Shown here: positions 6,332-10,480 of the stretch, in pieces
Numbering within the stretch: the stretch's first letter is position 1
How the letters are laid out: each line of letters starts with the position of its first letter
Source of the DNA: Thermoplasmatales archaeon ex4484_36
GTDB taxonomy: Archaea; Thermoplasmatota; Penumbrarchaeia; Penumbrarchaeales; EX4484-36
Direction of reading: 5' to 3'
DNA: 21,796 bases
Assembly (NCBI GenBank): GCA_002254765.1
Contig: NJDV01000074.1
Span: 1 to 21,796 of the forward strand
Program-made: the position numbers and the translations under genes
The notes under the pieces: generated by a model
The model's input: only the letters and a program-made list of their open reading frames with translations
Databases searched by the model: none
What the model was told of the DNA's origin: nothing

Positions 6332-6982
6332 ATGAAACTTTCCCTGCTCATGGACTTCGACGGGACGGCTACGGACAAGGATGTGACGGAGGTGATCTTC
6401 AGAAGGTTTGCCAGAGGTAACTGGCGCAAGTGGGACAAGATGGCACTCACTCTCAAGGTTCCGGTCCACAAGGCCCTCTCGGAGCAATTCAGAATGGTTG
6501 AGGCCACCCCGGAGGAGGTTCTTAGTGCACTGGATGAGGAGGTGCACCTCCGGGAGGGGCTCAAAGAACTTGTGGCTTATCTGAAGGAGGTGGAGATTCC
6601 CTGGATTATAGTGAGCGAGGGGGCGGATTTTTACATAAAATACATACTGGAAAGGGAAGGACTTCATCCCGATATGATCTTCTCTTACAGAAGTCGCTTC
6701 GTTAGGGGGCATATTGAAGTGGAGCCCCTCTGGATGTGGGAGGGATGTGATCGCTGCGGGACCTGCAAAAGGAGGATAGTGAAGGCGTTCAGACATCTGG
6801 GACCCGTGGCCTATGTGGGGGACTCCACCACGGACTTCTGTGTGGCAGACACAGTGGACCTCCTCTACGCCAGGGGATACCTCAAGGCTTTTGCGGAGAA
6901 GCAAGGGATCCCTCATGTGCCCTACCTAGACCTCCACCAGGTCAGGAAACATCTGAAGGGATTTCTGGAGGGGGAGGAATGA
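6332..6982 (+). CDS. MtnX-like HAD-superfamily phosphatase
   Basis: A 216-residue HAD phosphatase of the SerB/MtnX-like branch. Motif I is DFDGT (nucleophile D8, acid D10), motif II is the Ser in IIVSEG (S95), and motif IV is GDSTTD (163-168) with a basic stretch before it. A Cys cluster, CDRCGTC (139-145), sits in the cap-to-core region and may bind metal; it is unusual. In bacteria MtnX dephosphorylates a methionine-salvage intermediate, but no other salvage gene is nearby, so the substrate is open. The stop overlaps the next HAD start (ATGA), which points to an operon. It is the first gene of the plus-strand run that leads into the ubiquitin-like locus, but a functional link is not shown. 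Confidence 0.85.
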   Translation: MKLSLLMDFDGTATDKDVTEVIFRRFARGNWRKWDKMALTLKVPVHKALSEQFRMVEATPEEVLSALDEEVHLREGLKELVAYLKEVEIPWIIVSEGADFYIKYILEREGLHPDMIFSYRSRFVRGHIEVEPLWMWEGCDRCGTCKRRIVKAFRHLGPVAYVGDSTTDFCVADTVDLLYARGYLKAFAEKQGIPHVPYLDLHQVRKHLKGFLEGEE

Positions 6983-7598
6983 GACCTGTGGCTTTCCTGT
7001 TTGATCTGGGCTCAACTGTCTTTCCCTATAGGGAGAGTGAGGCAAGGCTTTTCCTGAGGAGGTTCTTTATGGGGGTGAGGACGAGGACCTGCCAAGCAGG
7101 CTCAGGAGATTCTTCAGGTCCACCGGGATAGAACCGGAGGATGAAGAGATCTGGATTGAGGAGCATCGGAAGGCTTTCGTGAGAAGCGTTGAGATCCCAC
7201 CCAGCAAGATAGAGTTCCTGAAATCCCTCTCAGAGAAGTTCCCGCTGGGGGTTGTGACGAACTACCCGGACGAAGAGACCATTCTCACCCTTCTAAAGAT
7301 GAACTCCCTTGAAGAAGCAATAAGTGCAGTGGCCGTCTCGGGAGCCCTGGGGTACAGGAAACCACACAGGAGGCCCTTCCTTCACGCCCTCTGGGAGATG
7401 GAGGTGAAGCCCTCCCGGGAAGTGGTGATGGTGGGAGACCGCTGGCTGGAAGACGTGGAGGGGGCGAGGGCGACAGGACTTACCGGAGTACTCACCGTTG
7501 AATGGGCTGAAGGGGAGAAGCAGCCTCCAAAGGATCCCACCGTGCCCATCATATACAGGCTGGAAGACGCCTTGAGGGTTGTGAGAAGGCTTAAGTAA
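6979..7598 (+). pseudogene. HAD-superfamily hydrolase, single frameshift
   Basis: A HAD hydrolase of about 206 residues read in two frames. The ATG at 6979 overlaps the previous stop and opens with motif I, FDLGST. The frame is lost at the G-run around 7066-7071; shifting one base there restores a continuous protein through to the stop at 7598. That protein has motif II in VVTNYP, a basic residue in RKPHRRP and motif IV GDRWLEDVEGA. Motif I has Gly at the usual +2 Asp site, which is tolerated in many HAD hydrolases but may change chemistry. A homopolymer miscall is the simplest cause, so the gene is probably intact in the organism. The substrate is unknown. It is followed 42 bases later by the ubiquitin-like gene. 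Confidence 0.8.
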
Positions 7599-7640: not shown

Positions 7641-7883
7641 TTGAAAATATACGTTCAGCTTCCAATTGGATACTCCTCCGGCCTCGTTGAGGTGGAGACG
7701 GAGCCTGAGCACACCCTCGCAGAGGTGAAAAGGGAGGTTTGCGCCGCCGAAGGCATACCCCCCAACAATATGGCTCTGATGTACGGCGGGGAGGTGCTGA
7801 AAGAGCATAAAACCTTGAAGGCCCTAGGGATAGAGGATGGCGCCACCCTGGCTCTTATGCCCCTAGACATCATAGGGGGATAG
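7641..7883 (+). CDS. Ubiquitin-like modifier protein with exposed Gly-Gly C-terminus
   Basis: An 80-residue beta-grasp protein closely following ubiquitin. It has the N-terminal hairpin (MKIYVQLPIG), a helix ending in EGIPP (37-41, the same five residues as in ubiquitin), a strand ALMYGG where ubiquitin has its Ile44 patch, KTLKALGIEDGATL matching the ubiquitin TLSDYNIQKESTL segment, and a tail that ends exactly in IIGG followed by the stop. No residues follow Gly-Gly, so no precursor processing is needed. Candidate chain-forming lysines are K30, K54, K57 and K60; the ubiquitin Lys48 position appears to be Glu. The start is TTG, supported by GAGGTGAG about four bases upstream. The E2 gene begins six bases after the stop. 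It is more like ubiquitin than like MoaD, ThiS or SAMP proteins. Expected role: covalent protein tag activated by the E1 two genes downstream. Confidence 0.93.
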   Translation: MKIYVQLPIGYSSGLVEVETEPEHTLAEVKREVCAAEGIPPNNMALMYGGEVLKEHKTLKALGIEDGATLALMPLDIIGG

Positions 7884-7889
7884 GGTAGT

Positions 7890-8444
7890 TTGGTGGACGA
7901 AGAGCTCCTTCTGGAGGAGAGGGAGTACATTCTGAAGAACTTCCCTCGGGTGACCTCCTCAAGCCCCACTCTCTACGAGGTGAGTCTCAGGGCGGAGGGA
8001 GGAAGGGTCCAGGAGCTGGCTGAAGAGGGTGTATGGCCCTTCACCCAGTACGTGAAGTGGCACAGAGCGAAGATAGAGGTGGGATACCTTTATCCCTTCA
8101 GACCTCCAGCCGTCACATGGCTCACTGACATAGACCACCCCAACATAATCCCGGGAAGGAGGGGAAAGGTCTGCCTCTCCATTCTCGGAAAGGGCTGGAG
8201 ACCCTCCTACAGGTTATCTGCAGTAATCAACGGGCTCTACTTTCTCCTTCAGGACCCCAACCCCTACTCCGCCTACCCCAACAAAAGGTGCAAAAAGGCG
8301 GCCATGGTGCTCTACATGTACGGCTTTCCCCTCCACAGACCTCCCACGGGAAGGTGGGTCAAATGCCCGGGGTGCTCAAACGACGTACTGATCATAGGAA
8401 ATGAGGGCAGGTGCTTACGATGCGGAAAGAGGATAGTTCTTTAG
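7890..8444 (+). CDS. E2 ubiquitin-conjugating enzyme-like protein with C-terminal zinc ribbon
   Basis: A 184-residue E2. The UBC fold spans about residues 1-150, with the HPN motif at 83-85, the catalytic Cys C95 in VCLSIL, and W103 exactly eight residues after it as in eukaryotic E2s (CLDILxxxW). The helix after it ends in LLQDPNP, again matching the eukaryotic LLxxPNP. Residues 155-184 add a zinc ribbon (C159/C162 and C175/C178) not found in the basic E2 fold, which could recruit an E3, substrate or the membrane protein. The start is TTG at 7890 or the adjoining GTG at 7893. It is packed between the Ubl and E1 genes and overlaps the E1 start by 25 bases. It should accept the activated Ubl on C95 and pass it to a target lysine. 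No frameshift is seen. Confidence 0.92.
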   Translation: MVDEELLLEEREYILKNFPRVTSSSPTLYEVSLRAEGGRVQELAEEGVWPFTQYVKWHRAKIEVGYLYPFRPPAVTWLTDIDHPNIIPGRRGKVCLSILGKGWRPSYRLSAVINGLYFLLQDPNPYSAYPNKRCKKAAMVLYMYGFPLHRPPTGRWVKCPGCSNDVLIIGNEGRCLRCGKRIVL

Positions 8445-9208
8445 ACCCCGAGGAGTTCTGGAGCCGCCAGGACAGACTATGGCCTGGTCTCAGGGGAAAG
8501 GCTGCCGGGCTCAAGCTAACCGTGGTGGGGGTGGGGGCCACAGGCAGCTACGCCGCTCTCTTCGCCGCCCAGATGGGCTTTCGGAGGATCACCCTTGTAG
8601 ACCCCGACAGAGTTGAAATGAGTAATTTGAATAGAACCCCTTACACGCTGGACCACATTGGGATGAGAAAGGTTGACGCCTTAGCAGAGATCCTGCGGGA
8701 GAAGGTCCCCGGGGTGCATGTGAGAACCTTGAAAAGAGCTGTGGAGACCCTCAGATGGGAGAGCGTTGAGGCTGATCTCATACTCTCTTGTCTGGACGTT
8801 GTGGATGCCAGATTCTATCTCGCCTCCCGGGCCTACAGAGCTGATGCACCCCTCTTTGACGTTGGAACCGAAGGAGAGAGGATTCGGGTGCAAGCATCCA
8901 TTCCCCCTGGGCCCTGTCTTGCGTGCACCGTTCCCGAAGAGCTCTACGGGGAGGTGGTGGGGCTTAAGGACTCCTGTACCGCCCCCGGGGAGGAGCACGC
9001 TCCCTCTGGCCCCTTGGTCCCCCCAAAGTTTATAAACCTTAACTGCAATTTGAATATGTTGGAAGGTGTGGCAGGATGGCCAGCAAGCTCCAGTGGATCA
9101 AAAGGCTCCGCTTCGCAGGAGACGGAGCCCTCTTTGCGATCCTCCTGCTCTTCATATATATCTTCCTCCGTGCCTACTTCAGCGACTACACCGCCGAGAT
9201 CGACATAA
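8420..9208 (+). CDS. E1-like ubiquitin-activating enzyme (ThiF/UBA fold), 3' end frameshifted
   Basis: An adenylating E1. From the ATG at 8420, residues 34-63 form the Rossmann core with GVGATG (37-42) and the acidic D61; then comes SNLNR (68-72) with the arginine finger, and K84 in GMRKVDA. GPCLACTVP (164-172) matches the first Zn-binding CxxC of MoeB/UBA proteins, and C186 in DSCTAPGEEH fits the CT active-site motif of canonical E1s. Adenylation of the Ubl Gly-Gly and thioester formation on C186 are inferred. The frame to 9208 ends with about 44 Ser-rich residues unlike the rest. Shifting near 9075 instead joins LEGVAG to MASKLQWIKRL, the expected E1 exit helix, so the true protein probably continues into the 9076-9585 frame. 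An ATG here beats the upstream GTG because GAGGGCAGGTG precedes it. Confidence 0.9.
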   Translation: MRKEDSSLDPEEFWSRQDRLWPGLRGKAAGLKLTVVGVGATGSYAALFAAQMGFRRITLVDPDRVEMSNLNRTPYTLDHIGMRKVDALAEILREKVPGVHVRTLKRAVETLRWESVEADLILSCLDVVDARFYLASRAYRADAPLFDVGTEGERIRVQASIPPGPCLACTVPEELYGEVVGLKDSCTAPGEEHAPSGPLVPPKFINLNCNLNMLEGVAGWPASSSGSKGSASQETEPSLRSSCSSYISSSVPTSATTPPRST

Positions 9209-9585
9209 ATCAATACGGCGAGGCCCGGGTGGAGCTCATCATCCTGCTGGGAGTTATCCTTCCCCTGGCCGCCTTGACCCTGGCCTACTCATACCTTGAC
9301 CTGGTGACAACATGGAAGGCACGCCAGTGGGTGGTCTCCACCGATTACTCACTTCTTGAAGGTTGGAGGAGGAAGCTCAAAGGCGGACCGGTAGAGCTCA
9401 AGTGCACAAGCTGCGGGCGCACCTTCCCCTTCGATCCCCTCTCGGCCCCCAGCAGATATGTGAAACTGGTTTGTCCCAGCTGCGGAAAGAGCGGCGTGGT
9501 AGACGTTCTCAGCCTGAAAGGGAGGGAGGGGGAGAGCGACATAAAGGTGAGGGTCATCAAGGACATCTGGGACAGGGGGGAGTGA
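9076..9585 (+). CDS. Two-helix membrane protein with zinc ribbon (possible E1 C-terminus)
   Basis: A 169-residue protein with an amphipathic start (MASKLQWIKRLRF), two transmembrane helices (about 17-34 and 53-75), then a soluble C-terminal domain with a zinc ribbon (C110/C113 and C133/C136). Only four Cys ligands are present, so it is not a RING finger. It lies between the E1 and JAMM genes, in the slot held by the small RING protein in the Caldiarchaeum ubiquitin locus. Two readings are possible. It may be a separate gene starting at this ATG, with a purine-rich GGAAGGTGTGG upstream and a TATA-like TTTATAAA at 9029-9036. Or it is the membrane-anchored C-terminus of the E1, since its first residues match the helix that ends E1 adenylation domains. 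Either would tether the system to the membrane. Confidence 0.75.
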   Translation: MASKLQWIKRLRFAGDGALFAILLLFIYIFLRAYFSDYTAEIDINQYGEARVELIILLGVILPLAALTLAYSYLDLVTTWKARQWVVSTDYSLLEGWRRKLKGGPVELKCTSCGRTFPFDPLSAPSRYVKLVCPSCGKSGVVDVLSLKGREGESDIKVRVIKDIWDRGE

Positions 9586-9658
9586 TATAGAGCGCGTCCT
9601 GGGCGGAGAGAGGGAATACCTTCCAGCGGACACTGTTTTTCTGATAGTCAGCGAGAGA

Positions 9659-10480
9659 ATGCTCAATAGGATGAGGGAAATCGCCGCCTCCTCCTCTCAA
9701 GAGGTTATAGGGCTACTTCTGGGGGGTGCCGAGCTCAACACCGTGAGGATTGTGGGGCATTACACAGGACCCCAGTATCGGATGAAAACCCGCGTGAGAT
9801 TGAGCACTAGAGCGGTTGCTTGGGCGGCTAAGGAGCTTATAAAGGAGGGGGCCAGAAACTCCCTTGTGGGGTGGTACCACTCCCACCCGGGCTTTGGAGT
9901 CTTTCTCTCACCCCGGGATATAAAAACCCACAGCACCTTCGCAGAAGCCTTCCCCCTCTCCATCGCCCTGGTCATAGACCCAGTGAGGGGAGAGGAGGGC
10001 TTCTTCACAGCCCCGGCAGGGGTCCCCCTCAAAATCCCCCCAGAAAACATGCTTCTCAAGAGGGAATGGGAAAGGAAGGAGGAGTTCGAGAGGGCATTAA
10101 AGGAGCTGAAAGAGAGGGCTCTTGAGAGCCTCGGCCCCTTCATGCTCTGCCCCCTGTGCCACACCCCCATGATACCCTTGGAGAGGCTGGGGGGGGAGGG
10201 TGCTGGGGAGGAAGGGAGAAGAGAAGGGGGCCTCGTCGTATACGAGAAGGAGAACTTTCTCTGTCTTAAGTGCAACAGAAGGTTTTCTGGGGCTGCCCTC
10301 CCCCTCTGTCCAGTCTGTGACTCCCTCATGGAGCTCGACGTGGAGAAGGGTAGTTTCTTCTGCAACGAGTGCCAGATGCACCACTACCCAATAAAGGGCA
10401 TAAAAAGGGTAGTCCAGATAAGAATGAAGAGAAAAGAAGAGGAGAGCGCAGAGAAAAGCATTCTGAAACGCCTTGAGTGA
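9659..10480 (+). CDS. Rpn11-like JAMM/MPN metalloprotease with two zinc ribbons
   Basis: A JAMM-domain deubiquitinase-like protein. Numbered from the ATG at 9659, the zinc site is E15 (EVIGLLLG), H74 and H76 (GWYHSHPGFG), S84 and D87, in the exact H-x-H-x7-S-x2-D spacing. The core closely resembles eukaryotic Rpn11 and archaeal Rpn11 homologues. Residues 135-155 form a charged helix, then two zinc ribbons follow (C164/C167 with C202/C205, C217/C220 with C235/C238), which is not a usual JAMM architecture. The first MPN strand (TVFLIVSERML) is encoded upstream of this ATG, in an open frame from about 9584, so the real start is earlier. No ATG, GTG or TTG serves there, only a CTG at 9599; an extra G in the run at 9575-9580 could have broken a fusion with the preceding gene. 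Predicted role: removal of the Ubl from targets. Confidence 0.92.
   Translation: MLNRMREIAASSSQEVIGLLLGGAELNTVRIVGHYTGPQYRMKTRVRLSTRAVAWAAKELIKEGARNSLVGWYHSHPGFGVFLSPRDIKTHSTFAEAFPLSIALVIDPVRGEEGFFTAPAGVPLKIPPENMLLKREWERKEEFERALKELKERALESLGPFMLCPLCHTPMIPLERLGGEGAGEEGRREGGLVVYEKENFLCLKCNRRFSGAALPLCPVCDSLMELDVEKGSFFCNECQMHHYPIKGIKRVVQIRMKRKEEESAEKSILKRLE

What the first reader, a model, noticed from the sequence alone, without database searches (positions are those of the whole stretch)
7641..10480. Compact eukaryote-like ubiquitin conjugation locus (Ubl, E2, E1, membrane zinc ribbon, JAMM)
Seen: five adjacent plus-strand frames encode a Ubl ending in Gly-Gly, an E2 with HPN, catalytic C95 and W103 at the eukaryotic spacing, an E1 with GxGxxG, arginine finger and CT active site, and a JAMM with exact HxHx7Sx2D spacing close to Rpn11. 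Known: a comparable Ub/E2/E1/RING/Rpn11 operon was described in Caldiarchaeum, with others in Asgard archaea; bacterial versions (Bil, CBASS-linked) are organised differently. Inferred: a functional tagging system in a genome with euryarchaeal-type ribosomal and RNA polymerase clusters, through transfer or ancestral retention, without a recognisable RING E3.
Basis: partly seen in the sequence, partly recalled or inferred. Interest (0 to 1): 0.95.

Follow-up and report, generated by a model that had tools for sequence, protein, structure and literature searches.

The report
Thermoplasmatal ubiquitin operon with membrane partner
A five-gene cluster in an uncultured thermoplasmatal archaeon encodes a ubiquitin-like tag, two enzymes that likely attach it to proteins, a protease that likely removes it, and a membrane protein predicted to bring the reaction to the cell membrane; related tag-conjugating genes occur in about a fifth of the sampled genomes of its phylum, outside the archaea usually linked to the origin of ubiquitin.

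Summary
The five frames are real: a ubiquitin-like protein (UBL) ending in Gly-Gly, a UBC-type E2 with a C-terminal zinc ribbon, a ThiF-type E1, a membrane zinc-ribbon protein (MZR) and an Rpn11-like JAMM. The host is a thermoplasmatal archaeon. Corrections: the E1 in this contig lacks its C-terminal end, while a 252-residue E1 from other assemblies, apparently the same species, is complete; it is MoeB-sized, not eukaryote-sized. The operon has no RING, but the genome encodes a protein with a RING-like tail behind a hydrophobic helix. E2 domains occur in 81 of 389 sampled Thermoplasmatota genomes, usually beside UBL, JAMM and E1; RING-like domains are enriched there (52 of 81, against 17 of 308). 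The window's E2 sits in a separate branch whose other members mostly carry an N-terminal UBL-type domain, usually without Gly-Gly at the junction; in one chromosome record (bin33) the fused gene lies among two MZR genes, a membrane JAMM, a free Gly-Gly UBL and an E1. Best reading: a reversible tagging system predicted to work at the membrane; a new variant of the archaeal ubiquitin operon. Biochemistry untested.

The parts
7641..7883 (+). UBL: 80-residue ubiquitin-like modifier, TTG start, ends ..MPLDIIGG with no tail
   Evidence: Pfam ubiquitin 3.4e-15; 2mqj (Caldiarchaeum Ub) 6.6e-10; 94% and 56% identical to the G001 and bin33 UBLs
7884..7889 (+). six-base gap between the UBL stop codon and the E2 start; corresponds in position to the junction of the fused relatives
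7890..8444 (+). E2: 184 residues, HPN 83-85, C95, W103
   Evidence: UQ_con 6.3e-17; catalytic residues invariant in 17 rows
8364..8423 (+). C-terminal zinc ribbon of the E2 (CPGC..CLRC)
   Evidence: sequence; among the 78 scored E2 loci only the window and G001 carry two CxxC after the UBC domain; also in database relatives P0004-P0012 and P0055
8411..9208 (+). E1 frame as called; likely start ATG 8420; homologous to E1 only to about 9020, the rest is out of register
   Evidence: ThiF 6.7e-31; DNA comparison with G001; intact P0057
9076..9585 (+). MZR: two predicted membrane helices (best 19-residue hydropathy windows begin at residues 13 and 52), zinc ribbon C110-C113 / C133-C136 (side of the membrane not determined)
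   Evidence: lies beside the system in G001 and twice in bin33
9659..10480 (+). JAMM (MPN+) with C-terminal zinc-ribbon region; frame open from about 9551, start codon unclear
   Evidence: JAB 4.6e-13; 6fjv 2e-19; catalytic residues shared with bin33

Best explanation
The operon encodes a ubiquitin-like modifier, an E1, an E2 and a JAMM protease, and likely runs a reversible protein-tagging cycle that a co-encoded membrane zinc-ribbon protein (MZR) is predicted to hold at the cell membrane. Inferred steps: the UBL, already ending in Gly-Gly, would be adenylated by the E1 (in cells whose E1 is intact) and passed to the E1 cysteine C189 (8411 frame), then to E2 C95, then to lysines of substrates. 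MZR, and perhaps the RING-tailed protein encoded elsewhere in the genome, would bring substrates or E2 together in place of an operon-encoded RING E3. The Rpn11-like JAMM would remove the tag; it is not needed to mature this UBL. Tagged proteins could go to the Cdc48/proteasome machinery that the genome also encodes. In the nearest relatives a UBL-type domain is fused to the E2 and has mostly lost its Gly-Gly, so there it is probably a fixed docking domain; in bin33 a separate UBL with Gly-Gly lies close by.
For: Families and catalytic residues. Co-location in window, G001 and bin33, with MZR beside the system in all three and twice in bin33. UBL 56% identical to the free bin33 UBL, both ending PLDI-[IV]GG before any tail. 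Phylum-wide pattern: of 78 scored E2 loci 63 have a UBL neighbour, 66 a JAMM, 57 an E1, 45 all three. E1 tree: window E1 with the bin33 operon E1 (98/92) and apart from the genome's own MoeB-like protein. RING-like domains in 52 of 81 E2 genomes against 17 of 308 others, and beside the E2 in 7 of 83 loci by motif. A strong hydrophobic stretch precedes the RING-like tail in G000 and G001 and in 9 more of the 16 loci examined with a motif match. Proteasome and Cdc48-N genes present. JAMMs with C-terminal or central membrane helices in bin33, L030, L035, L043.
Against: No biochemistry. The window's own E1 is truncated. The E1 is closest by profile to ThiF/MoeB, and the AU test does not reject a clade with MoeB (p 0.133). 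MZR's membrane hairpin is not specific to the system: of 29 other genomes with weak or partial MZR-profile matches, 25 have no E2, and some hold short hairpins with the same type of loop and no zinc ribbon. Its model matched nothing at E 0.001. Six of the seven RING-like proteins found by motif beside an E2 show no membrane helix in the part seen. RING-like hits also occur in 5 of 8 E2-lacking genomes of the window's own order, and the RING count is not corrected for kinship. The window's JAMM has no membrane helix, and only 4 of 66 JAMM-bearing loci clearly do.
Confidence: 0.66

Rival explanations
1. The UBL is a sulfur carrier or SAMP/Urm1-like protein and the E1 a MoeB-like activator; the E2 plays no true conjugation role.
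For: E1 best profile matches are ThiF/MoeB; AU test does not reject window E1 with MoeB.
Against: The UBL matches ubiquitin, with no ThiS/MoaD family among its hits up to E 1; E2 catalytic residues are invariant; the genome has a separate MoeB-like ThiF protein on contig C18 that groups with E. coli MoeB.
Confidence: 0.07
2. It is a defence module like Bil or Bub/CBASS-linked systems.
For: The E1 matches 33 PADLOC models up to E 1 (the 25 listed are all of the E1-E2 class) and the JAMM weakly matches JAB models.
Against: No PADLOC model matches the UBL or E2 up to E 1; the E1 matches only part of fused E1-E2 models; the downstream flank is kept in the same-genus genome; related gene sets occur across the phylum.
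Confidence: 0.08
3. The core is a tagging system but MZR is only a neighbour: a member of a general archaeal two-helix membrane family with no part in tagging.
For: Hairpin relatives without zinc ribbon in genomes without an E2; no fold match.
Against: Ribbon-bearing MZR matching the whole profile was seen only beside this system: window, G001 (cut by the contig end), and both flanks in bin33. The protein database gave three hits, one of them on a 1,103-base contig whose neighbours are unknown. bin33 was not searched genome-wide for MZR.
Confidence: 0.36
4. The locus is decaying in this lineage.
For: E1 loses its C-terminal end in this contig; a HAD gene next door is frameshifted.
Against: A nearly identical intact E1 stands for 12 database sequences on 5 contigs, longest 69,658 bases; G001's E1 is intact.
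Confidence: 0.07

Closest known systems
Caldiarchaeum subterraneum ubiquitin operon (Hennell James 2017, PMC5654768; Fuchs 2018, PMC6043591; abstracts and passages read)
   Same: UBL, E1, E2 and Rpn11-like JAMM encoded together; UBL and JAMM have the Caldiarchaeum proteins among their best solved matches.
   Different: There a small RING E3 is in the operon, the E1-like proteins are discussed with a C-terminal ubiquitin-like domain, and the UBL has a nine-residue tail cut by Rpn11. Here: no RING in the operon, minimal E1, no tail, E2 and JAMM carry zinc ribbons, and MZR is added.
'JAMM-3' group and Ub/E1/E2 operons without E3 (Fuchs 2018, passages read; species not named in the passages)
   Same: Same gene content class; JAMM near Rpn11/CSN5.
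   Different: Whether the window JAMM belongs to that cluster was not tested; MZR, E2 zinc ribbon and UBL-E2 fusion are not mentioned in the passages read.
Asgard ubiquitin systems (from passages of PMC5654768 and PMC6043591)
   Same: Ub/E1/E2/Rpn11-like set.
Bacterial Bil/Bub systems (PMC11354881, passages read; PDB BubCD hit)
   Same: UBL, E1, E2, JAB.
   Different: BilA has two ubiquitin-like domains and the E1 BilD is larger (passages); PADLOC models do not match the UBL or E2 here. PMC11354881 also mentions bacterial polyubiquitins fused to an inactive E2-like domain, a different fusion from the active-site-bearing one here.

Membership tests
Archaeal ubiquitin-conjugation operon (Caldiarchaeum type) | Ubiquitin-family modifier with C-terminal Gly-Gly | tested here: met
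Archaeal ubiquitin-conjugation operon (Caldiarchaeum type) | E2 with UBC core, HPN and catalytic Cys | tested here: met
   predicted model too poor to add anything (pLDDT 52)
Archaeal ubiquitin-conjugation operon (Caldiarchaeum type) | Intact E1 adenylation domain with catalytic Cys | tested here: inconclusive
   truncated in this contig, intact in P0057 and P0059
Archaeal ubiquitin-conjugation operon (Caldiarchaeum type) | E1 with extra C-terminal ubiquitin-like domain | tested here: not met
   252 residues, ThiF only; the feature is from a figure legend of PMC5654768
Archaeal ubiquitin-conjugation operon (Caldiarchaeum type) | RING E3 in the operon | tested here: not met
   a RING-like protein is elsewhere in the genome
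Archaeal ubiquitin-conjugation operon (Caldiarchaeum type) | Rpn11-like JAMM with full MPN+ residues | tested here: met
Archaeal ubiquitin-conjugation operon (Caldiarchaeum type) | ATP-dependent thioester relay and lysine conjugation | not testable with these tools
   needs proteins
SAMP/Urm1/MoaD-type sulfur carrier system | Modifier in the ThiS/MoaD family | tested here: not met
   no such Pfam hit for the UBL up to E 1; PF02597 found nowhere in the 54% complete own genome
SAMP/Urm1/MoaD-type sulfur carrier system | E1 inside the MoeB clade | tested here: inconclusive
   free tree apart, AU p 0.133
Bil / CBASS-type defence modules | UBL and E2 matched by defence-system models | tested here: not met

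The most novel reading that the evidence does not exclude
Thermoplasmatota carry their own membrane ubiquitin pathway, parallel to eukaryotic membrane quality control: membrane zinc-ribbon and RING-tailed proteins act as the ligase step, membrane-tethered JAMMs act as the eraser, and the ubiquitin-fold domain that eukaryotes put on the E1 to catch the E2 has instead been welded to the E2 itself. The window shows the split state of that weld.
Probability: 0.18. Interest if true: 0.9.

Novelty: new variant of a known kind. Interest (0 to 1): 0.66.

Why it matters
Discussion of where the ubiquitin cascade came from rests, in the papers read, on Caldiarchaeum and Asgard archaea. A phylum outside both, with many E1-UBL-E2-JAMM gene sets, several E2 branches, a UBL-E2 fusion branch, some membrane JAMMs and enriched RING-like proteins, gives a natural series of gene-set stages to test: which step needs an E3, how a minimal E1 hands over to an E2, and whether early tagging served the membrane.

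Tried and rejected
E2 model from 17 sequences: pLDDT 52, not used. MZR model: pLDDT 67; Foldseek against PDB gave nothing at E 0.001 (ZitP zinc finger at rank 2, E 1.4, 36 columns), so no fold claim. A first E2 profile picked up UBLs because fused UBL-E2 proteins were in it; one search separated them by an HPN-C pattern, which dropped 5 of 83 loci (L037, L039, L042, L105, L171). The E2 places of five genomes (G022, G032, G040, G045, G054) were not fetched at length and are in none of the neighbour counts. The E2 tree used the 78 scored loci less L174, 13 of the 53 database proteins, and four more loci. A first E1 tree held a mis-picked frame from L067 and long branches; L067, L074, P0060 and P0062 were dropped and 18 more rows of the common clade thinned before the second tree. 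TAG read-through joining UBL and E2 was considered; nothing tested supports it, and G001 has a stop at the same place. Contamination was considered and set aside. Literature: the listings (open-licence library only; 31, 67 cut at 20 titles) showed no paper on E2 operons of Thermoplasmatota by title or abstract start; thermoplasmatota with ubiquitin-conjugating, ubiquitin and archaea gave 0 papers.
Full report
What is there. The window (21,796 bases) is contig C67 of a 1.02 Mb, 54% complete genome bin. The same-genus genome G001 corresponds to a record named 'Thermoplasmata archaeon' (its 4,863-base contig matches JAGHBW010000185.1), a name that NCBI places in Thermoplasmatota. Frames at 7641-7883, 7890-8444, 8411-9208, 9076-9585 and 9659-10480 lie head to tail on the plus strand. 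Pfam gives ubiquitin, UQ_con, ThiF, a weak zinc ribbon, and JAB. Solved relatives are: natural and designed ubiquitins with 2mqj (Caldiarchaeum Ub by PMC6043591) at 6.6e-10, UBC12 at 9.1e-12, TcdA/MoeB/ThiF/UBA5-type enzymes, and 6fjv (recalled as Caldiarchaeum Rpn11) at 2e-19.

The E1 needs correcting. Compared with G001, the DNA is similar up to GGTCCCCCC (about 9020) and then passes into the leader of the MZR gene. A database E1 of 252 residues (P0057; 12 sequences, 5 contigs, longest 69,658 bases; one named DRN35_03295, Thermoplasmata archaeon) matches the window up to that point, 99% over 195 columns, and goes on to a second CxxC. So this contig's copy is incomplete, and other assemblies of what looks like the same species hold a complete one. 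Whether the loss is an assembly fault or a strain difference is open. Even intact, it is a single ThiF domain without the C-terminal ubiquitin-like domain that a figure legend of PMC5654768 mentions for archaeal E1-like proteins.

Relatives of the E2. A protein search returned 53 E2s. Apart from two of the window type (82% and 96% identical) and two fragments (P0055, P0056), they are longer proteins at 52-60% identity with an N-terminal domain in front of the E2. In 18 of the 53 that domain carries a ubiquitin or Rad60-SLD (SUMO-like) label (PF00240 or PF11976); in the rest of the long ones it is UBL-type only by alignment and length. I could read the junction in 43: 3 have Gly-Gly immediately before the conserved VDEELL-type start of the E2, 40 do not; the other 10 had no fusion or no readable junction. 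The three with Gly-Gly all belong to the sub-group whose E2 ends in a zinc ribbon, as the window's does. In the window the same position holds UBL-Gly-Gly-stop, six bases, then LVDEELL. The tree of 94 E2 cores, with 11 of the fused database proteins and the bin33 one, puts the window type (98/97) with the fused proteins (16 rows, 96/95), apart from a 70-row clade of other Thermoplasmatota E2s (86/75). Some end branches are long and only 138 columns were kept, so deeper forks are not relied on.

The bin33 chromosome. The genome collection scan found two loci: G001's contig and one on a 5.16 Mb chromosome record, CP070751.1, Thermoplasmata archaeon bin33. There, in order: MZR, UBL-E2 fusion (junction without Gly-Gly; PF00240 6.5e-5), JAMM with one membrane helix and an Ig-like domain (Big_7), free UBL ending in PLDIVGGKDE, E1 with an extra N-terminal stretch of about 80 residues, second MZR; further on another gene and another E1 on the other strand. 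The free UBL is 56% identical to the window's. So here, where the fused domain has lost Gly-Gly, a separate conjugatable UBL exists. bin33 also has a second locus with an E1 closest to ubiquitin-activating enzyme E1 1 (1.8e-37), an E2 closest to UBE2T (3.2e-16), a JAMM, and a 694-residue protein with weak RING and RWD matches.

The phylum. PF00179 matched 81 of 389 sampled Thermoplasmatota genomes, 80 over the family's cut-off (61 of 203 of good quality; 0 of 14 control genomes). I took 83 loci (60 fetched, the window, and two of bin33); five E2 genomes (G022, G032, G040, G045, G054) were left out. A strict HPN-C pattern scored 78 of the 83: 63 have a UBL neighbour, 66 a JAMM, 57 an E1, 45 all of these; the UBL ends exactly in Gly-Gly in 26 and has a tail of up to 12 residues in 36. 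Contig ends make the neighbour counts lower bounds. The commonest UBL ending is IPDPEGG.

RING. The window operon has none. PF13639 found one place in each of G000 and G001 and two in bin33. In G000 (contig C36) and G001 it is a C-terminal C-x2-C ... C-x-C-G-x2-[FY]-H-x2-C ... C-P-x-C tail, 69 and 32 residues behind a strongly hydrophobic stretch. Scores are marginal (27.3 and 25.6 bits against a cut-off of 27.3; 22.5 and 22.1 in the whole-protein scan, where G001's also matches Prok-RING_1). Of 18 RING loci examined, 16 match the motif and 11 of these have such a stretch (hydropathy 1.7 or more) within 120 residues before the tail. Across the phylum, 52 of 81 E2 genomes but 17 of 308 others have PF13639 at E 0.001 (Fisher p 6e-29, not corrected for kinship). 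In 7 of 83 loci a RING-like protein found by motif lies beside the E2: L035, L043, L045, L046, L164 on the same strand, L171 and L174 divergent; the bin33 second locus adds one found by Pfam only. Against a membrane reading: six of those seven (all but L046) show no membrane helix in the part seen, some being cut by the stretch. Against an E2 link: 5 of 8 genomes of the window's own order have RING-like hits but no E2. At least two E2-lacking genomes (G228, G313) carry RINGs that look eukaryote- or virus-like to my eye.

MZR. Hydropathy gives two membrane helices in all four loci's sequences, with a conserved IN-x-YGEA loop between them, then four ribbon cysteines. In the phylum sample only G000 and G001 match the profile along most of its length (G001's is cut by the contig end; bin33 was not in that sample); 29 other genomes give weak or partial matches, 25 of them without an E2. 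Some of these are short hairpins without a ribbon. So the hairpin belongs to a wider family, and the ribbon-bearing form was seen only with this system. A ligase or recruiting role is my inference from position and domains; the orientation in the membrane is not shown.

E1 origin. In the second tree (46 rows, 269 columns) the window E1s join the bin33 operon E1 (98/92) and then the other operon E1s (97/89), while the genome's MoeB-like protein (C18) joins E. coli MoeB (99/97). Forcing window E1s with MoeB costs 12.2 log units, p-AU 0.133, so that alternative is not rejected.

Machinery downstream. Proteasome-family genes (two places each) and a Cdc48-N domain are present in G000, G001 and bin33 (the G000 Cdc48-N frame is only 112 residues), as expected of archaea; they permit but do not show degradation of tagged proteins. 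ThiS/MoaD family: none found in the incomplete G000, one place in G001, five in bin33.

Literature. Hennell James 2017 (PMC5654768) and Fuchs 2018 (PMC6043591), read as abstracts and passages, describe the Caldiarchaeum cascade, further archaeal clusters I-III whose members are in a supplement I could not open, and a JAMM-3 group nearer to Rpn11 and CSN5; Fuchs also says that prokaryotic JAMMs closer to Rpn11 lie in operons with Ub, E1 and E2. Some Thermoplasmatota operons may therefore already be in those figures, which lowers the novelty of the general finding. [quoted passage not shown] PMC10936438 (passages) places the ubiquitin-ESCRT link in Asgard archaea and describes minimal ESCRT in Thermoplasmata, with no Thermoplasmata ubiquitin system in the passages seen. 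PMC11354881 (passages) names Caldiarchaeum and an Asgard isolate for E2/E3-type systems. PMC11237513 (a reference title only) cites a MoaD-MoaE fusion cut by a JAMM, a precedent for processing of Gly-Gly fusions.

Verdict. A real, probably working ubiquitin-type system of a new make-up. Core tagging function: likely. Membrane action through MZR or RING-tailed proteins: plausible, untested. Names of neighbouring genes not covered by a call (ribosomal L37e, Sm, nitroreductase, Hef) are read by eye.

Noticed in passing
window 6979-7598 (+): A HAD-type hydrolase gene (by eye) is split by a frameshift between about 7060 and 7130; with the E1 deletion this suggests indel faults in the contig.
   Followed up: partly
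L105 3969-9188 (bin33 second locus): Second ubiquitin locus on a thermoplasmatal chromosome record: E1 closest to ubiquitin-activating enzyme E1 1, UBE2T-like E2, JAMM and a 694-residue protein with weak RING and RWD matches.
   Followed up: partly
L035, L043, L045, L164: Very long frames (1,888-2,780 residues, cut by the stretch) ending in a RING-like tail lie directly upstream of the E2 or UBL-E2-JAMM genes; no membrane helix in the part seen.
   Followed up: partly
L131 5595-7484, L148 5390-8044, L153 2256-4895: JAMM domains inside 629 to 884-residue proteins between E2 and E1 genes.
   Followed up: no
L066 10494-11462: bin33 operon E1 has about 80 extra N-terminal residues that look to me like a further beta-grasp domain; no Pfam match there.
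   Followed up: no
L084-L088, L093: Small two-helix membrane proteins with an IN-x-[YF]GEA-type loop, in some beside one conserved gene (ILGQTHFIKSVEDLYEA motif); wider family of the MZR hairpin.
   Followed up: partly
L107 (G313), L108 (G228): RING proteins that look eukaryotic or viral in thermoplasmatal bins without an E2 hit; possible contamination.
   Followed up: no
window 9551-9659: The JAMM frame is open and conserved upstream of the first ATG, with no ATG/GTG/TTG; the same-genus genome keeps the stretch (..VFLIVSE..); an unusual start codon is possible.
   Followed up: partly
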